NCBI GenBank assembly: GCA_005809105.1
Contig: SYLI01000070.1
Coordinates: forward strand, 1-35,045
Reading direction: 5' to 3'
Source: Verrucomicrobiales bacterium
Lineage (GTDB): Bacteria; Verrucomicrobiota; Verrucomicrobiia; Limisphaerales; UBA1100
DNA: 35,045 nt
Below are positions 895-16,348 of the stretch, one piece after another. The notes below the pieces were generated by a model, which saw only the letters and a list, made by a program, of their open reading frames with translations, was not told the DNA's origin and searched no databases. The translations under genes were made by a program, and so were the position numbers. How positions within the stretch are numbered: position 1 is the stretch's first letter; every line of letters begins with the position of its first letter.

Positions 895-2085
895 CTAGCC
901 GACCTCATTCACCAGCGCGCGAGCCTTTGGCGCACACCCCCTGCCGCCTGGTGACCAGCACTCCCAGGGAAGGTGCGCGTCGCTCCACGGCCCCCATGCC
1001 ACGAAGGGACGAAACCGCACTGCCGCAAGCCCGAGGTCCCGATGGGAACCTGCAAGCGTAAGGTCGTAGCCCGAGAGCCATCGGTGCGCAAGACGAGGCT
1101 CGAGCGGCCGGCCGTCGCTCTCGATTGTCACTTGTGCCGGCGCGCTGCCCCCGGGCACGTAGGCGAAGCGAACGAGAGCGTCGCGGCAGAGGCCGGAGGC
1201 CACGAGGTGTTTGGCGATTTGCCGGGCCCGAAGCGGCCCACAACGATCCACCTTGTGAGGGTCCTTGCCGCAGAGCGCACCGCCCCCAATGGGAACCGCC
1301 GGCCCGTAGAAATCGACGACGAGCTTCTTGCCCGAGAGACCGTTGTCGCCGTAAGGACCGCCAACGGCAAATGCTCCCGCGCCGTTGATACGCAGGACTT
1401 CGGGGCCGAGATTGCCTCTGCCCAGCGATGGAAAGGCACGCTTGGCTCCCTCAATCCACATTTCGACTGCACCGCGCGCAAGCCGGGCGACCTCCACGTC
1501 ATCCGCGTCTTGGGCGTGGTGCGCCGATACCGATACGATCCTTAGTGTGGGAGCCTCAGGCTGGCCCCCGATCGCAACAAGAACCTTCCCGTCCGGCCCC
1601 AGCACATCGGGGTGTTCGCACCGCACCCGATTCAACTGCTCGGCGAGAGTCCGCGCGAGGAAGTGTTCTACAGGGAGGAAGTTGGTCCGCTCGTCACCGC
1701 AGGCGTAGCCCATCACCACCGATTGGTCATCTGAGACTCCGCGAATCTCGCGCTCGCCGTCCTGCAAGTTATCGAGGCACAGATCAGAAACGATCCGAAG
1801 CTCGGCTGGAGCTGGCTGCCAGCGGTCGTAGCCCACTTCCGCGAAGACGTCACGGACGGATCCCTCCACATCAATCCCCGTGGCTTTGTTCCCGGCAATG
1901 CGCCCATCGACAAACACCACGTTGCGATGCACGGCCACCTCCACCGCCACCAGCGCATCGGGGTCGCGCTCGCAAGCTGCATCAACGAGCGCGTCGGCAA
2001 TCGCGTCGGCCAGACGGTCGGGATGACCGGGCAGCACGTACTCCGCGAAACGAACATTTTCAACTGTAGCAGGTTCAGTCTTCAT
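895..2085 (-). CDS. metK: Divergent S-adenosylmethionine synthetase (methionine adenosyltransferase)
   Basis: MetK makes S-adenosylmethionine from methionine and ATP. The 396-residue product has the family's length (about 380-400) and layout. Visible are GHPDR (H21, D23), E49 in VAVEV, the gating-loop segment VSDDQSVVMGYA, K167 in GPDGK, GGPYGDNGLSGKK (D247, K254) and GGGALCGKDPHKVDR (K274, K278, D280). These correspond to the catalytic residues of the E. coli enzyme. Several normally invariant positions differ: HPDK is HPDR, GRK is GKK, and the stretch before GGGA is rewritten. This is a clearly diverged lineage that still looks active. The ATG at 2083-2085 is chosen because AAAGGAAAC lies just upstream; it overlaps the end of the VWA gene by 11 bases. 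It is the last gene of a four-gene operon behind a SAM-I riboswitch, which fits end-product control. Confidence 0.88.
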   Translation of the reverse strand: MKTEPATVENVRFAEYVLPGHPDRLADAIADALVDAACERDPDALVAVEVAVHRNVVFVDGRIAGNKATGIDVEGSVRDVFAEVGYDRWQPAPAELRIVSDLCLDNLQDGEREIRGVSDDQSVVMGYACGDERTNFLPVEHFLARTLAEQLNRVRCEHPDVLGPDGKVLVAIGGQPEAPTLRIVSVSAHHAQDADDVEVARLARGAVEMWIEGAKRAFPSLGRGNLGPEVLRINGAGAFAVGGPYGDNGLSGKKLVVDFYGPAVPIGGGALCGKDPHKVDRCGPLRARQIAKHLVASGLCRDALVRFAYVPGGSAPAQVTIESDGRPLEPRLAHRWLSGYDLTLAGSHRDLGLAAVRFRPFVAWGPWSDAHLPWECWSPGGRGCAPKARALVNEVG

Positions 2086-3460
2086 TGTTTCCTTTCTTGA
2101 TCGGTAGCTCGACGAACTTGCGTGCGATGCCCTCGAGTTGCTTGCGATCGCCACCCGGTGTCAGCGCCACGTCCAATCGCGCGCGCGAGCGTGCAAGCCA
2201 CTCGCGATGCATTTTTGGAACAGGGCCCACATACCCATCGGTGAGTAAGAGAGCGCGGGAGATGCGATGCTCCAACATGTGCGCGGTGACGCAGGCCATG
2301 TCGGTGCCTCCTGTCGTATAGACCCGCCCAAGGCTTACGCCCCGCCTGTCTAGGTCGACGACACCTCCGCTGAAGCAATGCACCACGCAGCTGCCACTCC
2401 TCATATGCGGGCGCACCGCCGCAAACAGGTCGGCCTGGTAGGGGCCAGTGCTGCCGCTCACGTCCACGTACACATGCACGAGCGCAGGTGTGGGCGTGGC
2501 CTTGGGCTGTGGCAACTCGGTCTGGAACAAAAGTGGTGGTGCGCCAAGCAGCCCTCGCACCACGGCCCTGCGATCGCGCAGTTGCGGGATAGGTGTGCTC
2601 GCCACGCGATCAACAAGGCCTTGCTTCGTGCGTTGGGTCGTGCCCGCACCTTCAATCGCCAGCGTGTGGAACATGCGCCTCAAAAGTGCGATGGCACTAG
2701 GGATACCGCGCCGCCATGCAACAAGGGTCTCTCGAAGCTCGCCCCCAACGCTCCTGCCGTGCCCTGGATCGGGAGGCGTCGGCCACTTCTCGACCACCGC
2801 GCGGATGGCATCAAGCAGCACCGACGCGCGAGCGGCCTCGAGGGAGCGTCCTTCTCGTCCCTCTTCGGGGCCATGGTCGCCGAGGAGAATCCAGCCCAAC
2901 TCGAACACATCTTCGCAGGCGGTTTGCTCGAGGATACGGAAGAGCTCGCTGTAGCCGACGCCGGCCTTGCCATAGAGCGCTAGCACGACCTCGCGAACAC
3001 TCTCGGGAAGGGTCGCTGGCGGTTCAGGGTGCAATGGCCAGCCGGGAGGCGGCCGCAACAGACAGGACGGAAAGGTGTCGGCGGCGTTCATCTTCTCGAA
3101 AAAACCACGGTACGCCTCGCTTGGAAACATGTGACAAAGCAGCGAATTGATGACCGCGTCGAAGGCAATGTTTTGCGCCTCGGTGATGCGCGGAAAGAGC
3201 CGCGTATGCCCGAGCAGGACGTGGTGAACCTCGTGCATCACCAGCATCAGAAGGTGCTCGTCGCTGCGGCAGTGGCGTTCAATGAAGCCGGGATTGAGCA
3301 GCAAACGAGGGGTCGTCCGGCACTCGACGGCGGCTGACTCGACCGAGTCGTCGAGGCCGATGTCCAGAAGCCCAAGCAGCCCGTCCATCGCATAATGTGC
3401 GGCGGGGAAGCAGTTCAGGATGCGGTGCCGAAGGTTCCCGGGTGCAGAGCGGTAGCTCAT
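2075..3460 (-). CDS. VWA-like protein with N-terminal HExxH metallopeptidase-like domain (DUF2201 type)
   Basis: The 461-residue product appears cytoplasmic, with no signal peptide. The N-terminal half carries HEVHHVLLGH (H76, E77, H80, H85), the HExxH pattern of the putative metallopeptidase domain found in DUF2201 proteins. The C-terminal part has a complete MIDAS metal site of a VWA domain: DVSGS (D333, S335, S337), GGTD (T386, D387) and LLTDG (D408). Proteins of this build usually work with MoxR-type AAA+ ATPases, and one is encoded two genes upstream. The ATG at 3458-3460 overlaps the previous stop as ATGA and has GGAGGT upstream, which strongly supports this start over a longer open frame reaching 3652. 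The substrate is unknown. The link to MetK, encoded next, could be assembly, metal loading or turnover, but this is only inferred. Confidence 0.85.
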   Translation of the reverse strand: MSYRSAPGNLRHRILNCFPAAHYAMDGLLGLLDIGLDDSVESAAVECRTTPRLLLNPGFIERHCRSDEHLLMLVMHEVHHVLLGHTRLFPRITEAQNIAFDAVINSLLCHMFPSEAYRGFFEKMNAADTFPSCLLRPPPGWPLHPEPPATLPESVREVVLALYGKAGVGYSELFRILEQTACEDVFELGWILLGDHGPEEGREGRSLEAARASVLLDAIRAVVEKWPTPPDPGHGRSVGGELRETLVAWRRGIPSAIALLRRMFHTLAIEGAGTTQRTKQGLVDRVASTPIPQLRDRRAVVRGLLGAPPLLFQTELPQPKATPTPALVHVYVDVSGSTGPYQADLFAAVRPHMRSGSCVVHCFSGGVVDLDRRGVSLGRVYTTGGTDMACVTAHMLEHRISRALLLTDGYVGPVPKMHREWLARSRARLDVALTPGGDRKQLEGIARKFVELPIKKGNNED

Positions 3461-3912
3461 GGTTGACCTCCAGAAATAAAGCGGGCATCTCGGGTGACGA
3501 GTTGGCGACAAAGCGTCTCCCGATCGAGCCGTGGCGTCTTTTGCGCGACCCACACGATGTCGGAAGACTTCGACAGGAGAACGAGAGCGAGCGGCAGATC
3601 GCAAAGGAGTTCGGGGCTCAAGTTCGCCAACGGTCGGCAGACCATCGCGCACCCGGCAAGCCCGCGCGCCTCGACTTCGCGCTCGATTCGGGTGCGCAGC
3701 GCTTCGATCGGATCATGCGAGCGTGGCTCGCCGAGGCGGTAGAGTAACCAAGCTGCCAGGTCTTCTGAATTGAGGCGCTGTTGTGCCTCCGGCCCCAAGG
3801 TCGCAACGGCAACGTACGCGGCACCGCATCTTGGCGGGTGAATCTGGACGGGCTCCATGGTCACATAGTACCGCGACGGGCAGCCATAGTTCCGCACAAG
3901 GGGGTAGGTCAT
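3457..3912 (-). CDS. Conserved-operon protein of unknown function, 151 residues
   Basis: I do not recognise this protein. It has no signal peptide, membrane helix or obvious catalytic motif. The middle is predicted helical and charged (EALRTRIEREVEARG), and a hydrophobic strand LPLALVLLSKSSDIVWV lies near the C-terminus. It is locked into the operon by ATGA overlaps on both sides: its start overlaps the AAA+ stop and its stop overlaps the VWA start. AGGGAGG upstream of the ATG is a good ribosome binding site. The position between an AAA+ ATPase and its VWA partner suggests an adaptor or third subunit of the same complex. This is inferred from context only. Confidence 0.8.
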   Translation of the reverse strand: MTYPLVRNYGCPSRYYVTMEPVQIHPPRCGAAYVAVATLGPEAQQRLNSEDLAAWLLYRLGEPRSHDPIEALRTRIEREVEARGLAGCAMVCRPLANLSPELLCDLPLALVLLSKSSDIVWVAQKTPRLDRETLCRQLVTRDARFISGGQP

Positions 3913-5396
3913 GATAAGGCCTCCCTCCCCCAGCCAAAGAGCTCCACCAACTCGCGGAACCAGGTGAGGATCGACGCCGGAACGAAGTCCCCGTCATCGC
4001 GCTCGAATGCCACGAGAAGCGCGTTGTAAAGGGTTCGGTCAGCAACCGATTCCTTCTTCAATCCCACCAGCTCGTGCTGGATCTCTCGCAAGAGCTCTGT
4101 GCGCCGCGACCCCTGGATCGGACTGAACTTGCGTTCCCCGGGGTGCTCGATTCGTTTTTGGACCTCGGCGATGACCTCGAATGCGGTGGCAGTCAGGTTA
4201 ACCTTGGTTGAGACGACAGGATACAGGGCGGCTGCGAACATCACGCGCTTGGCAGGCGCCAACTCGGCGTAGGCGTCGAGCACGAAAGTGGACAGATCGG
4301 TTGCGCCCAGCCCGACGCGCAAGCCCAGCCCCACGCGCCGCACGGGATCGGGTTCAGAGAGCACAAGGCGTGTGAGATCGCTTTGCGGAAGGCGCGCAAG
4401 CGCCCATGCCTGTCGGTGCGCGGCCAGCACCTTGCCGCTGTCGAGAGCGCGGCCGATGGCCGGCTGCGGGAGGCCACACCGTAACGCAAGGTAGGCCGAT
4501 TCTCCCGGATCACACGACGCATCTACGCACACTCTCGCGGCGTGGACGGCGATGACGGCGTCGTGGAGGTAGCGCGCCCGGCGAGGACTGATTTTCCTTT
4601 GCATCTTCTCAAGCAGCGGCAGCAGTGCGCCCACGTAGTCGCACGCGGCCTCGCAAAGCGAGGCACGAACGGCAGGGAGCAATCGGCGGACAGTCTCTAC
4701 CTCCAACCGCAGTCGAGCGGCCGCGTCAGGCTGAACTTCATCGGAGGTACCGCCAATAACCGCCCGCCGCTCAGTCTCGGTCATTGTGCGGAAGTCGGGC
4801 GCCTCGAGAACGAATGGAAAACGGTCGGCCAATGCCGGGTCGAGTGGCTCCGAGCCACGGTAGACATCGACGCCCTCCTCCTCTTCTTCGCCGCTCTCCG
4901 GCAGCGCCGGCGGGTTCATGGCGGCCCATCTGAACCTCAGCTTTGGAAGCTCAAGCCCCTGAACCACGCGCTCGTGGATGATGGGAAAGAGCTTGTTCTG
5001 AAGGTCAACTCGGCAGCGCGAAATCTCGTCAATCAGAACGGACTCAACGTCCCAGATCGAGCTGGCAGTGGGCACGTAGACGAGCTGGGTGCGGTCGTCG
5101 GAAGGAACGGGATAGCCCACGAGGTCGTCGAAGTTTAGAAGCGAGGCGTTGTAGTGCCTGTGTCGAAGCCCCAAGGCACCTGCAAGTCGGTTGAGAAGAA
5201 GCGACTTCGCAGTGCCATGCGGGCCGATGAGAAGAACCGGCTCCTCTGTCGCCAGCGCGGCGACCACCACCGGCTCCATCGCGCGCCATCCGAAGATGCC
5301 CAGGGAGGCCAACGCCCCGGTTCCAGCCGGCGGGCCGTTCCTGCGCGCCACGTCCTTCTTGCTCTCCGCACCTTTCGTTTTTCTCGCCACAACCAT
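3909..5396 (-). CDS. MoxR-family AAA+ ATPase
   Basis: MoxR ATPases are hexameric chaperone-like machines that remodel or metal-load target proteins together with VWA partners. The 495-residue product has Walker A GPHGTAKS (G58-S65), Walker B VLIDE (D123, E124), sensor-1 AAMNPP (N161) and the DPALADRF arginine-finger segment (R192). An acidic insert EEEEE lies before the finger. The C-terminal 250 residues are helical and unassigned. The start is ambiguous. ATG at 5394-5396 has GGAGG only one base away, whereas GTG at 5388-5390 is spaced seven bases from the same GGAGG and may be the true start. The open frame continues to 5495, but that part lies in the riboswitch leader. It is the first gene of the SAM-controlled operon. 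Confidence 0.87.
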   Translation of the reverse strand: MVVARKTKGAESKKDVARRNGPPAGTGALASLGIFGWRAMEPVVVAALATEEPVLLIGPHGTAKSLLLNRLAGALGLRHRHYNASLLNFDDLVGYPVPSDDRTQLVYVPTASSIWDVESVLIDEISRCRVDLQNKLFPIIHERVVQGLELPKLRFRWAAMNPPALPESGEEEEEGVDVYRGSEPLDPALADRFPFVLEAPDFRTMTETERRAVIGGTSDEVQPDAAARLRLEVETVRRLLPAVRASLCEAACDYVGALLPLLEKMQRKISPRRARYLHDAVIAVHAARVCVDASCDPGESAYLALRCGLPQPAIGRALDSGKVLAAHRQAWALARLPQSDLTRLVLSEPDPVRRVGLGLRVGLGATDLSTFVLDAYAELAPAKRVMFAAALYPVVSTKVNLTATAFEVIAEVQKRIEHPGERKFSPIQGSRRTELLREIQHELVGLKKESVADRTLYNALLVAFERDDGDFVPASILTWFRELVELFGWGREALS

Positions 5397-5446
5397 TCCT
5401 CCGCGATGCGGCCGCGCGGACGTGTGGTGCGCCCCAAAACGTAATC

Positions 5447-5473
5447 GGCCCCCCTCGCAGTGCAAGGGAGGCC
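5447..5473 (-). terminator. Leader hairpin downstream of the riboswitch (likely attenuator)
   Basis: On the minus strand GGCCTCCCT and AGGGGGGCC can form a 9-bp stem (one G-T pair) around a nine-base loop, 14 bases after the aptamer and about 50 bases before the AAA+ start. The following TTACGTTTT is a weak T-tract. The layout aptamer-hairpin-gene is the usual one for SAM-I attenuation. A CCTC in the first arm could pair with GAGG of the aptamer's closing stem as an antiterminator. The mechanism is inferred. Confidence 0.55.
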
Positions 5474-5487
5474 GCCGTCTTTGGCGT

Positions 5488-5602
5488 CCCCTCATCGTCT
5501 GCGAGGCCTTGTGAGCCTCGCACCAGGCGTTGCCACCTTACCCGTTGGGCAGGTTGGCCGGGTTTCGCAGGGCCTTAGTCCCTCCACCCGTCCTGATGAG
5601 AG
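5488..5602 (-). ncRNA. SAM-I (S-box) riboswitch aptamer
   Basis: Reading the minus strand, the SAM-I core is recognisable in order. The P1 5' arm is CTCTCATC (5595-5602). The conserved GGGTGGAGGGACT is followed by GGCCCTGCGAAACCC, CGGCCAACC, AAGGTGGCAACGCCTG and a P4 hairpin GCGAGGC/GCCTCGC. The P1 3' arm is GATGAGGG, giving eight pairs (one G-T). Small departures from consensus are an extra C in the CGGCAACC segment and GC for CT after AAGGTG. This element binds SAM and typically shuts down downstream methionine/SAM genes when SAM is high. Here it precedes an operon whose last gene is a SAM synthetase. Confidence 0.92.
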
Positions 5603-5772: not shown

Positions 5773-5847
5773 TGGCTCCAGAGGTAGGATTCGAACCTAC
5801 AACCACACGGTTAACAGCCGCGTGCTCTACCATTGAGCTACTCTGGA
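5773..5847 (-). tRNA. tRNA-Asn (anticodon GTT)
   Basis: The minus strand folds as a full cloverleaf. The acceptor is TCCAGAG/CTCTGGA, the D stem GCTC/GAGC, the anticodon stem CGCGG/CCGTG with loop CTGTTAA, and the T stem GTAGG/CCTAC with loop TTCGAAT. The discriminator is G and the CCA is encoded in the DNA (5773-5775). GTT reads Asn codons. A promoter-like sequence lies just upstream at 5862-5890. Confidence 0.97.
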
Positions 5848-14230: not shown

Positions 14231-16348
14231 TCAAGGGCTGGCCAGCGCGGCAACCTCACGGGCATTGAGCGCGCGATTAAACACCGCCACTTCGTCCAGC
14301 CGGCCTTCCCAGTTGGAGTGGTTGTCGCTGCGACCCCCAAGGAAGATTTGGTCGAAGCTCTTTGGAAAATCAGCCGCTGCCTGCGTCTCTATTTCCAAGC
14401 GGCCGCCAACATAAACCCGGACCACACGACCCTCACGCACCAAGGCGACGTGGCGCCACTGCCAGCGCGGGATGACGGCCTGACCCACGGCAGCCCTTTG
14501 CGAATCACCGCCATGCTGGAATAAAATCTTGCCAGCGTCCGGGCCTATCCCGGCAATCCCAAGGTGGTCACCAAATTCACCCAGACTGTGGTCGCGGTCG
14601 CGTGAAAAAAGCCATCCACTCACGCTTCGCGCGTCGTTGGGCATGCCATTCCAGAGCCAGAGCGAGACCGTGTAACGGTCGGCCATGGAAGCCATCCTGG
14701 CACGAAGGCGCGCGCCCACGAAGTGGGGTGCTCGATTGGTCTCGCCCTCGCAGAACGCCTCAGAGTGCGGGCCTGCCAGATAAAATGTGATGTCCGGCTC
14801 ATAGACGGCATGAGCGCCAAGGCCCGAAGCATCGGCTGCATGGGGCCCGGTGAATTCGTTGAGACGCCAGTAGGCAGAGGGCTTCATCGCCCCAATGGCG
14901 CGCGCCCCCCTGCCCTCACTGAGCTTCCATTCCCGCCGCGACTTGTCCGAGACCGACTCCAAAAGGCCAATGGCCGCCTCGGTGATTTTGGGCTCGGCAT
15001 CGACTTCAAGCCCGGCGGATCGCGCAGCCCAAGTATTGTACCCGCCAAACCGGTGCTGCTCCGGAGGCGGAATGTAGCCATCGCCACCATTGGCCAGCTC
15101 GATCACCATGGTCTGGGATAAGGGACTGGCCGCTTTAATTTTGAGGCCCGTGATGGCATAGGTCTCCGTCGGCGTCGTCGCGATGGCGATTTCGCCAATG
15201 CGCAGCGCCTGCACAACGACTTCGGTTTGCTGCATTTCATGGAGGAGAATCTGTTCGCGCGCATAAACCTCCGTGGTGGTATTGGGTGCCCGATTGGTCA
15301 TGGTGGCAACCACCCGACGCGCCCACTCCAGCCGCTGCGCATCGGGAACGCGGTACTTGAGCGTCATGCGAGTTTCGGCCATCGCTAGGTTCACATCGGC
15401 GCGGTACTGGATTTTCGAGATGGCGTTGGTCGCAATCTCAAGGAGGCCGCGTGTGTAATCGTCGATGGACAGCTTGGCGTTCCACTCCGCCTCGGGCCGT
15501 GTGTAGTCGCGTCGCCAGATGTCGCCGCTGCAACCGTGTGAGAGCATGCCGACAAAGGGCTGGCGGCCCTCAGCAACCTGGTGCGCGAGACGGGCCTTCA
15601 ATCCCTCCGCAAAAAGCCCGAAGTAATCGGCGCTGATGTCCGCGTCGCTGAAGTAATGCATAGAGAAGTTTCCGAGCACGGTGATGGGCCGGCCATCCCG
15701 CGATTGAATGGAAATCAGCGACAAGTCCGGGTCTTCCGGCCCAGCCTCACCTGTCACATCGTCCCAAACCCTACCCGCATGCATGTTGGCGCGCACACTG
15801 CGGTTGCCAAAGGGGTCCAGTTCGATGCGGTCGGGGCGCCGAATCCACTGGCGCAGCGCCGTATAAGCCGCCGCGTCAGCCTTGGCAAAGCCAATGCGAG
15901 CCGGCTCTAAATTGGCCTGTGCCGCAGCGATGGCCCGCACCAGCCGCTCGCGCAACACCGGCACGTAGGCGGGGTCGGCATCGGTGCCGAGGCATCCCAT
16001 TGACGCGGGCGCGCTGTGCGTGTGCGTCGCCGAAATCAGGATTCGATTTGTGGCAATCCCCGTCCGCACCGAGGCCAGTGACTTGGCCTCATCGAGCAGC
16101 ACGCGGCCCATCATGCAACTGTCCACCACAACGAGCGCAACCTGAAGCTTGCCATCGGAGAGCACCACGGCGCGAGCGTGGACGCGCGTCTTGATCTTTT
16201 CCAATGCGCGGCTGAGCATGCCGCCGTTCACCAGCACGGGAAGTTTTTCCGGCGTGACATCCACCACCGCGGCGCCCGCCTTGAAGTCGGCGCGCACCGG
16301 TGCCAATGCCAGCCATACGGCGGCGGGAAAATAGAGAAACCGTTTCAT
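14231..16348 (-). CDS. Secreted neutral/alkaline ceramidase-like protein with C-terminal LamG domain
   Basis: The 705-residue protein begins with a signal peptide (MKRFLYFPAAVWLALAPVRA, cleavage probably after ARA-like VRA). Residues 20 to about 450 match the neutral/alkaline non-lysosomal ceramidase N-terminal domain: AAVVDVTPE, LVVVDSCMMG, ILISATHTHSAP (metal-binding His pair), NFSMHYFSDADIS and MLSHGCSGDIWRRDY. From about residue 485 there is a LamG/concanavalin-like domain: YWRLNEF, YTVSLWLWNG, WQWRHVALVREG, VYVGG, and the typical end LDEVAVFNRALNAREV. Such secreted fusions are common in Planctomycetes and Verrucomicrobia. The real substrate (ceramide, glycan or other ester/amide) cannot be inferred. 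It is convergent with the broken SulP gene, only eight bases away. Confidence 0.88.
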   Translation of the reverse strand: MKRFLYFPAAVWLALAPVRADFKAGAAVVDVTPEKLPVLVNGGMLSRALEKIKTRVHARAVVLSDGKLQVALVVVDSCMMGRVLLDEAKSLASVRTGIATNRILISATHTHSAPASMGCLGTDADPAYVPVLRERLVRAIAAAQANLEPARIGFAKADAAAYTALRQWIRRPDRIELDPFGNRSVRANMHAGRVWDDVTGEAGPEDPDLSLISIQSRDGRPITVLGNFSMHYFSDADISADYFGLFAEGLKARLAHQVAEGRQPFVGMLSHGCSGDIWRRDYTRPEAEWNAKLSIDDYTRGLLEIATNAISKIQYRADVNLAMAETRMTLKYRVPDAQRLEWARRVVATMTNRAPNTTTEVYAREQILLHEMQQTEVVVQALRIGEIAIATTPTETYAITGLKIKAASPLSQTMVIELANGGDGYIPPPEQHRFGGYNTWAARSAGLEVDAEPKITEAAIGLLESVSDKSRREWKLSEGRGARAIGAMKPSAYWRLNEFTGPHAADASGLGAHAVYEPDITFYLAGPHSEAFCEGETNRAPHFVGARLRARMASMADRYTVSLWLWNGMPNDARSVSGWLFSRDRDHSLGEFGDHLGIAGIGPDAGKILFQHGGDSQRAAVGQAVIPRWQWRHVALVREGRVVRVYVGGRLEIETQAAADFPKSFDQIFLGGRSDNHSNWEGRLDEVAVFNRALNAREVAALASP

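What the first reader, a model, noticed from the sequence alone, without database searches (positions are those of the whole stretch)
895..5602. A SAM-I riboswitch controls an operon of MoxR ATPase, unknown protein, HExxH-VWA protein and a divergent SAM synthetase
Directly seen: a well-formed SAM-I aptamer (5488-5602), a hairpin with terminator geometry, then four genes locked by ATGA or 11-base overlaps with strong ribosome binding sites, ending in metK. Known: SAM-I riboswitches shut down methionine/SAM genes at high SAM, and MoxR/VWA pairs remodel or metal-load protein targets. Inference: the ATPase, the 151-residue protein and the HExxH-VWA protein act on or with this MetK lineage, for example in maturation, disassembly or metal loading when SAM is low. 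I know of no described system combining these parts. An alternative is a conflict-type module that uses SAM or a SAM-derived compound.
Basis: partly seen in the sequence, partly recalled or inferred. Interest (0 to 1): 0.85.

Follow-up and report, generated by a model that had tools for sequence, protein, structure and literature searches.

The report
SAM-switched MoxR–VWA–variant MetK operon
A rare but widely spread bacterial gene set, apparently switched off by the methyl donor SAM through three different kinds of RNA sensor, pairs a protein-remodelling machine with an unusual SAM-synthetase relative whose methionine pocket has been rebuilt, which suggests either an emergency way of making SAM or a new adenosyl-transfer reaction.

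Summary
A SAM-I aptamer (window 5489-5602, minus; Rfam 71.4 bits) precedes four overlapping genes: MoxR AAA+ ATPase, a 151-aa protein, an HExxH + VWA protein, and a divergent MetK (MetK2). This is no local oddity: MoxR–p151–VWA–MetK2 recurs in the same order in Verrucomicrobiota/Kiritimatiellota/Lentisphaerota, Planctomycetota, Myxococcota and Acidimicrobiia. The four genes co-evolve (distance r 0.83-0.98) but hardly with the host's ordinary MetK (r 0.32-0.40), so the unit moves as a block. Of 30 operons with an intact leader, 22 have a well-supported SAM aptamer and 6 more a supporting one, of three kinds: SAM-I, SAM-I/IV and the unrelated SAM-II. 21 of 22 carriers checked also have a canonical metK. 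MetK2 is one clade (100/100). It keeps the ATP/phosphate residues but has lost the methionine-binding Glu (to Arg or Cys), the Ile of YAIGV, and the gating-loop motif described as universal in MATs. Best explanation: a SAM-shortage module in which a NorQD/CbbQO-like MoxR–VWA machine acts on MetK2. Client and reaction are inferred, not shown. No described system with these parts was found in the papers searched.

The parts
5489..5602 (-). SAM-I (S-box) riboswitch aptamer in the leader of the operon
   Evidence: Rfam RF00162, 71.4 bits, E 5.7e-15, full-length match; one of only two SAM-I aptamers in the 3.0-Mb genome
5446..5474 (-). 13-bp GC-rich hairpin, candidate transcription terminator of the expression platform (imperfect U tail)
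   Evidence: terminator scan, folding; 0.8 such sites expected by chance, so weak on its own
3909..5396 (-). MoxR-type AAA+ ATPase, 495 aa (an alternative GTG start at 5390 fits the GGAGG ribosome site better)
   Evidence: Pfam AAA_5 5.6e-10, bpMoxR 2.8e-5; alignment A4 of 16 relatives
3457..3912 (-). p151: small fast-evolving protein, start overlaps the MoxR stop; family motif HNMSxPPR ... CxDPxLTLAILSRxSGNIYxxxR, degenerate in this copy
   Evidence: slot filled by an overlapping ORF in the loci aligned; no Pfam match; AlphaFold2 model pLDDT 83, pTM 0.77 with no PDB match
2075..3460 (-). HExxH (DUF2201_N-like) + VWA protein, 461 aa
   Evidence: DUF2201_N 5.6e-5; H76, E77, H80 invariant and MIDAS residues conserved in 19 sequences; model residues 323-456 match VWA domains, VIA Z about 11, best Foldseek hit NorD of the NorQD complex, E 2.6e-4
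3221..3235 (-). HEVHH zincin-type motif (residues 76-80)
   Evidence: invariant H, E, H in alignment A1
2450..2464 (-). DVSGS: first part of the MIDAS motif of the VWA domain (residues 333-337); T386 and D408 complete it
   Evidence: alignment A1
895..2085 (-). MetK2: divergent SAM-synthetase paralogue, 396 aa; start overlaps the VWA stop by 11 bases
   Evidence: S-AdoMet_synt N, M and C domains; monophyletic MetK2 clade, support 100/100
1900..1902 (-). Arg in place of the methionine-binding Glu (E. coli Glu56, human Glu70)
   Evidence: residue table over 29 MetK2 and 20 canonical-type MetK sequences
1741..1767 (-). site where the gating-loop motif QSPDIxQGV of ordinary MetK is missing
   Evidence: absent in 29 of 29 MetK2, present in the canonical-type sequences compared

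Best explanation
A SAM-shortage module. While SAM is plentiful it binds the leader aptamer and the operon stays off; when SAM falls, four proteins are made together. MoxR (a hexameric AAA+ motor) and the HExxH-VWA protein form a remodelling complex of the NorQD/CbbQO type, with p151 as a dedicated adaptor or lid. Their client is the co-encoded MetK2, which keeps the ATP-cleaving half of SAM synthetase but lacks the gating loop and the usual methionine contacts, and so plausibly needs the partners to become active. Its product raises, or stands in for, SAM. Shown here: the parts, their conservation and co-evolution, the three SAM aptamer classes, and the residue changes. Established for the families: SAM-I, SAM-I/IV and SAM-II as SAM sensors; MoxR-VWA pairs as remodellers. 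Inferred: the OFF direction in this organism, MetK2 as client, the role of p151, and the reaction of MetK2.
For: (1) In 30 operons with an intact leader a SAM aptamer is well supported in 22 and supported in 6 more. SAM-I: window, L013. SAM-I/IV: most others. SAM-II, an unrelated fold: L158, L160 above cut-off; L156, L157 by P1 + pseudoknot motif, 0 such hits in 847 kb of shuffled sequence. In 9 of the 30 genomes searched the operon's aptamer is the genome's only SAM-I/IV match. (2) Gene order MoxR-p151-VWA-MetK2 holds wherever the VWA scores 200 bits or more and the contig is long enough, except the f30 variant with a canonical-type metK in front. (3) Pairwise distances of the four proteins correlate at 0.83-0.98, against 0.32-0.40 with the host's canonical MetK. 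(4) The trio is tied to two different MetK lineages (MetK2; canonical-type in L034, L035) with the same aptamer class. (5) The VWA domain's best structural match is NorD of NorQD; MIDAS and HExxH are intact. (6) ATP/phosphate motifs are kept in MetK2.
Against: No experiment exists. MetK2 has lost Glu56 and the gating loop, both tied to methionine use, so making SAM is doubtful. The client could be the housekeeping MetK or another protein. An intact HExxH suggests a peptidase, which NorD and CbbO are not described as. The trio with a canonical-type MetK in f30 argues against a need to rescue a loop-less enzyme specifically. The window's terminator hairpin is imperfect.
Confidence: 0.5

Rival explanations
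1. MetK2 no longer adenosylates methionine but another acceptor (for example a methionine analogue without the free amino group, or a peptide or protein thioether). The operon then makes a SAM-like product or modification when SAM is scarce.
For: Glu56 becomes Arg (27 of 29) or Cys (2), the gating-loop motif including methionine-contacting Gln99 is missing in 29 of 29, and the Ile of YAIGV (human Ile322, which contacts SAM, PMC3793261) is Pro, while the ATP/Mg/phosphate motifs stay. Glu70, Gln113 and Asp258 hold methionine in human MAT2A (PMC6850014). The clade sits on a long stem branch with 100/100 support. All but one carrier have an ordinary metK for SAM.
Against: Repression by SAM fits a SAM-making enzyme more simply. 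The f30 operons carry a MetK with the ordinary methionine site. The Q113A mutant of MAT2A still makes SAM at about 75% (PMC6850014).
Confidence: 0.22
2. The trio acts on the housekeeping MetK or on SAM-consuming proteins (freeing, remodelling or clipping them through HExxH), and MetK2 is an independent low-SAM isozyme that merely shares the switch.
For: Intact HExxH. Canonical MetK is present in 21 of 22 carriers. The trio pairs with a canonical-type MetK in L034 and L035.
Against: Strict gene overlap and tight co-evolution of MetK2 with the trio, but not of the canonical MetK with them.
Confidence: 0.15
3. MetK2 is catalytically dead and serves as a SAM/ATP-binding sensor subunit of the MoxR-VWA complex.
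For: Loss of the gating loop: the S114A loop mutation in MAT2A stops SAM formation (PMC6850014).
Against: The motifs carrying the ATP-cleaving and tripolyphosphate-binding residues are kept across phyla, which is unusual for a pseudo-enzyme.
Confidence: 0.08
4. A conflict or defence module triggered by SAM depletion, for example by phage SAM-degrading enzymes.
For: MoxR-VWA pairs occur in predicted conflict systems (PMC7159879). The unit moves horizontally. SAM loss would derepress the operon.
Against: No PADLOC match beyond 14 bits; flanking genes are ordinary and differ from locus to locus; no toxin-like or nuclease effector in the unit; the conflict-system paper shows no hit for metK, SAM synthetase or riboswitch.
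Confidence: 0.05

Closest known systems
NorQ/NorD (MoxR-VWA chaperone that inserts iron into nitric oxide reductase)
   Same: MoxR AAA+ plus a VWA protein with MIDAS, serving an enzyme client; best Foldseek match of the VWA domain is NorD (mechanism in PMC13036017)
   Different: the N-terminal part carries HExxH/DUF2201; the extra p151; the putative client is a MetK; control by SAM riboswitches; metal insertion not shown
CbbQ/CbbO rubisco activase (PMC4660213)
   Same: MoxR-VWA pair acting on an enzyme that becomes inhibited
   Different: client and trigger; no HExxH or p151 counterpart known to me
MoxR-vWA ternary conflict systems (VMAP, iSTAND, FtsH, beta-propeller; PMC7159879)
   Same: MoxR, VWA and a third protein
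   Different: none of the four named third components is recognised here; no effector; no MetK or riboswitch in that paper
MetK / methionine adenosyltransferase (TIGR01034)
   Same: three-domain family match, ATP- and phosphate-binding motifs
   Different: 198.6 bits against a cut-off of 309.4; no gating-loop motif; Glu56 to Arg/Cys; separate clade
SAM-I, SAM-I/IV and SAM-II riboswitches upstream of metK
   Same: the aptamers themselves; metK genes are frequent targets of SAM riboswitches (PMC2864571)
   Different: here they head a MoxR-VWA operon; three classes converge on one operon type

Membership tests
SAM-I riboswitch (RF00162) | match to the covariance model above the gathering score | tested here: met
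   71.4 bits against 44.4
SAM-I riboswitch (RF00162) | binds SAM and lowers expression | not testable with these tools
   needs in-line probing and a reporter assay
Methionine adenosyltransferase (MetK, TIGR01034 equivalog) | score over the curated cut-off | tested here: not met
   198.6 bits against 309.4
Methionine adenosyltransferase (MetK, TIGR01034 equivalog) | ATP, Mg and tripolyphosphate residues (GHPD, DQ, PDxK, GD, GKK, GGGAxxGKDxxKVD) | tested here: met
   conserved in MetK2
Methionine adenosyltransferase (MetK, TIGR01034 equivalog) | methionine-binding Glu and gating loop with QSPDI | tested here: not met
   Glu to Arg/Cys and loop motif absent in 29 of 29; the loop is described as present in all MATs (PMC6850014)
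MoxR-VWA remodelling pair (NorQD/CbbQO type) | MoxR-clade AAA+ ATPase next to a VWA protein | tested here: met
   Pfam AAA_5 and bpMoxR; VWA fold 323-456; adjacent in the operon
MoxR-VWA remodelling pair (NorQD/CbbQO type) | intact MIDAS in the VWA domain | tested here: met
   DxSGS, T386, D408
MoxR-VWA remodelling pair (NorQD/CbbQO type) | VWA finger in the AAA+ pore; ATP-driven remodelling of a client | not testable with these tools
   needs a complex structure and biochemistry
DUF2201 metallopeptidase-like proteins (PF13203) | match above gathering score with HExxH | tested here: met
   23.3 bits against 23.2, only just; HExxH invariant; peptidase activity not tested
MoxR-vWA ternary conflict systems | third component VMAP, inactive STAND, FtsH or beta-propeller | tested here: inconclusive
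   MoxR scores below the bpMoxR cut-off (23.7 against 27); p151 and the VWA protein show no such Pfam domain
Known anti-phage defence systems | match to PADLOC models | tested here: not met
   only a 14-bit mad8 trace for the AAA+ protein

The most novel reading that the evidence does not exclude
MetK2 founds a new enzyme class: an ATP-dependent adenosyltransferase that has swapped methionine for another acceptor, works only in a complex with a MoxR-VWA machine and p151, and is made only when SAM runs low. A second reading of like novelty is the first MoxR-VWA 'activase' of SAM synthesis.
Probability: 0.3. Interest if true: 0.92.

Novelty: new variant of a known kind. Interest (0 to 1): 0.8.

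Why it matters
SAM is the main methyl donor of all cells, and its synthase is taken to be uniform, with a universal gating loop. A widespread second synthase-like enzyme without that loop, locked to a protein-remodelling machine and to SAM sensors of three RNA classes, points to an unknown layer of SAM homeostasis or to a new adenosyl-transfer reaction. It also gives a MoxR-VWA pair a concrete, soluble and assayable candidate client; few such pairs have one.

Tried and rejected
(a) Peptidyl-methionine adenosylation of p151 at the Met of its HNMSxPPR motif: suggestive, but the window and L013 copies have Tyr or Leu there; dropped. (b) Mobile-element cargo: no VWA match on plasmids; phage hits are generic phage MetKs, at most 36% identical. 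(c) Defence island: not seen. (d) Fold of p151: Foldseek finds nothing below E 1 in the PDB and VIA-align nothing at Z 2 or more; no fold is claimed, new or known. (e) Literature: no paper in the held library has both 'SAM riboswitch' and 'MoxR'; other queries gave no description of this operon. (g) The 351-aa ORF between metK and MoxR in L034 has no Pfam match and may be spurious. (h) Covariance model R2 (SAM-II) gave no independent support for L117 (E 2.8), and L159 reaches only 24 bits in Rfam; both are counted as weak.
Full report
WHAT IS IN THE WINDOW. On the minus strand a SAM-I aptamer (5489-5602, 71.4 bits) precedes a 13-bp hairpin (5474-5446) and four overlapping genes: MoxR AAA+ (3909-5396), p151 (3457-3912), HExxH-VWA (2075-3460) and a divergent MetK (895-2085). 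The same genome has an ordinary metK on another contig (556.8 bits). The genome's two SAM-I aptamers lie at this operon and in front of a threonine-synthase-like gene, and it has no SAM-I/IV match, so no aptamer of either class was found at its ordinary metK.

IT IS A CONSERVED UNIT. A scan of genome contigs of 84,980 species with short MetK2 peptides gave 18 loci; every one with enough flank has MoxR, VWA and MetK2 in that order, with a p151-type ORF between MoxR and VWA in those aligned. Independently, a VWA profile was run over 388 + 246 + 237 + 246 genomes of four phyla. Loci at 200 bits or more (6, 5, 9 and 1 genomes) have the whole unit where the contig allows; in L117 and L118 the p151 slot gave no profile match. 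Loci below about 150 bits have MoxR and a DUF2201-VWA gene but no MetK; one at 150.8 bits, L161, is cut off inside the VWA gene and carries SAM aptamers. Two operons of one family (L034, L035) carry a canonical-type metK in front of the trio instead. So the unit is rare, roughly 2% in these phyla (seed genomes are counted in), but spread over Verrucomicrobiota in the wide sense, Planctomycetota, Myxococcota and Acidimicrobiia.

IT EVOLVES AS ONE. Pairwise distances of MoxR, p151, VWA and MetK2 correlate at 0.83-0.98; with the hosts' canonical MetK only at 0.32-0.40. The window's MetK2 is sister to a Polyangiaceae copy (77% identical, support 98/99), while its canonical MetK groups with those of its own class. 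Horizontal transfer of the whole unit is the simplest reading.

SAM CONTROL, THREE TIMES OVER. Thirty operons have an intact leader. SAM-I: window and L013. SAM-I/IV at or above Rfam's score: L014, L016, L018, L019, L020, L023, L024, L026, L030, L033, L119, L161. Further SAM-I/IV copies found by a model not trained on them, with no match elsewhere in 275 kb: L015, L017, L027, L031, L034, L115 (E 5e-11 to 0.005). Sub-threshold SAM-I/IV at the right place: L032, L035, L116, L155 (31-38 bits). SAM-II above score: L158, L160, plus a second, weaker aptamer in tandem in L161. SAM-II by structure: L156, L157 (9-bp P1, 5-bp pseudoknot, 0 such hits in 847 kb shuffled). Weak: L159 and L117. L160, L161 and L119 end inside the VWA gene on their contigs, so MetK2 is not seen directly there (for L119 it is on fragment L120 of the same genome). 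The SAM-I/IV set shows strong compensatory change (10 of 14 pairs with double changes; 93% of cells paired against 30-46% when slid; the structure was derived from this alignment). Genome-wide, 12 of 23 RF01725 matches in 30 genomes are at this operon, and in 9 genomes it is the only one. SAM-I/IV and SAM-II are unrelated folds, so SAM control of this operon has arisen more than once.

METK2 IS NOT AN ORDINARY METK. MetK2 forms one clade (100/100). Across 29 sequences it keeps GHPD, the Lys and Asp motifs of the ATP/phosphate site, and the K+ site Glu. The Glu of the GGE motif, whose human counterpart Glu70 binds the methionine amino group (PMC6850014), is Arg in 27 and Cys in 2. The gating-loop motif QSPDIxQGV is missing in all. 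GLTGRK has become GLSGKK. YAIGV has become xxPGx, losing the Ile that contacts SAM (human Ile322, PMC3793261). The gating loop is described as present in all MATs, and loop residue Ser114 as essential for SAM formation but not for phosphatase activity (PMC6850014). 21 of 22 carriers checked have a canonical metK over the cut-off, so MetK2 is an extra enzyme.

THE MACHINE. The C-terminal domain of the VWA protein is a VWA fold (VIA Z about 11) and Foldseek's best match is NorD in the NorQD complex (E 2.6e-4). MIDAS and HExxH are conserved. NorQD twists a client to insert metal; CbbQO frees inhibited rubisco (PMC13036017, PMC4660213). In such pairs the client is typically encoded alongside (from my knowledge of the families), which makes MetK2 the first candidate. 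p151 is fast-evolving, has a confident model (pLDDT 83) and no PDB match. An adaptor, or a lid in trans for the loop-less MetK2, is a guess. An extra gene of about 75 aa with weak similarity to DUF6538 precedes MoxR (or metK in L034 and L035) in part of the family; the window lacks it.

VERDICT. The regulation and the MetK link are strongly supported by comparative evidence. The client, the role of HExxH and p151, and above all the reaction of MetK2 are open. I commit to a SAM-shortage module with MetK2 as client of the MoxR-VWA machine (0.5); the chief rival is a MetK2 with a different acceptor (0.22).

Noticed in passing
L001 1501-1618 (G000:C38:2563-2680): The genome's other SAM-I aptamer (82.2 bits) ends 77 nt before a 419-aa ORF (L001 1696-2955) that reads like a threonine-synthase-type PLP enzyme (family judged by eye).
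   Followed up: partly
L062, L063, L065: A third MetK paralogue group (about 350-375 aa, GWGDQG motif). In L062 it lies between a ParB/DNA-methylase-like gene and terminase-like genes, so probably in a prophage; in G202 (L063) a SAM-I/IV aptamer lies about 95 nt upstream of the match.
   Followed up: partly
L015, L018, L020, L031-L035, L115, L155: Small gene of about 75 aa (HHLWNNNGTWWCHYTLH...SLGTxxxxEAxxLRDxL), weakly like DUF6538, between the riboswitch and the first large gene of the operon; function unknown.
   Followed up: partly
L161 1237-1312 and 1447-1594: Tandem leader: a SAM-II-like aptamer (28 bits, below cut-off) followed by a SAM-I/IV aptamer (47.5 bits) in front of one MoxR gene.
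   Followed up: no
L033 9755-9884 (minus): A second SAM-I/IV aptamer a few kb downstream of the operon, on the other strand; target gene not determined.
   Followed up: no
L121-L124, L162-L164: Broader class of MoxR plus HExxH/DUF2201-VWA pairs without MetK nearby; their clients are unknown.
   Followed up: no
window 14231-16348 (minus): 705-aa protein with a neutral ceramidase N-terminal domain and a laminin G-like domain.
   Followed up: no
window 5776-5847 (minus): A tRNA gene lies about 170 bp upstream of the aptamer, a possible landmark for insertion of the transferred unit; no attachment repeats were looked for.
   Followed up: no
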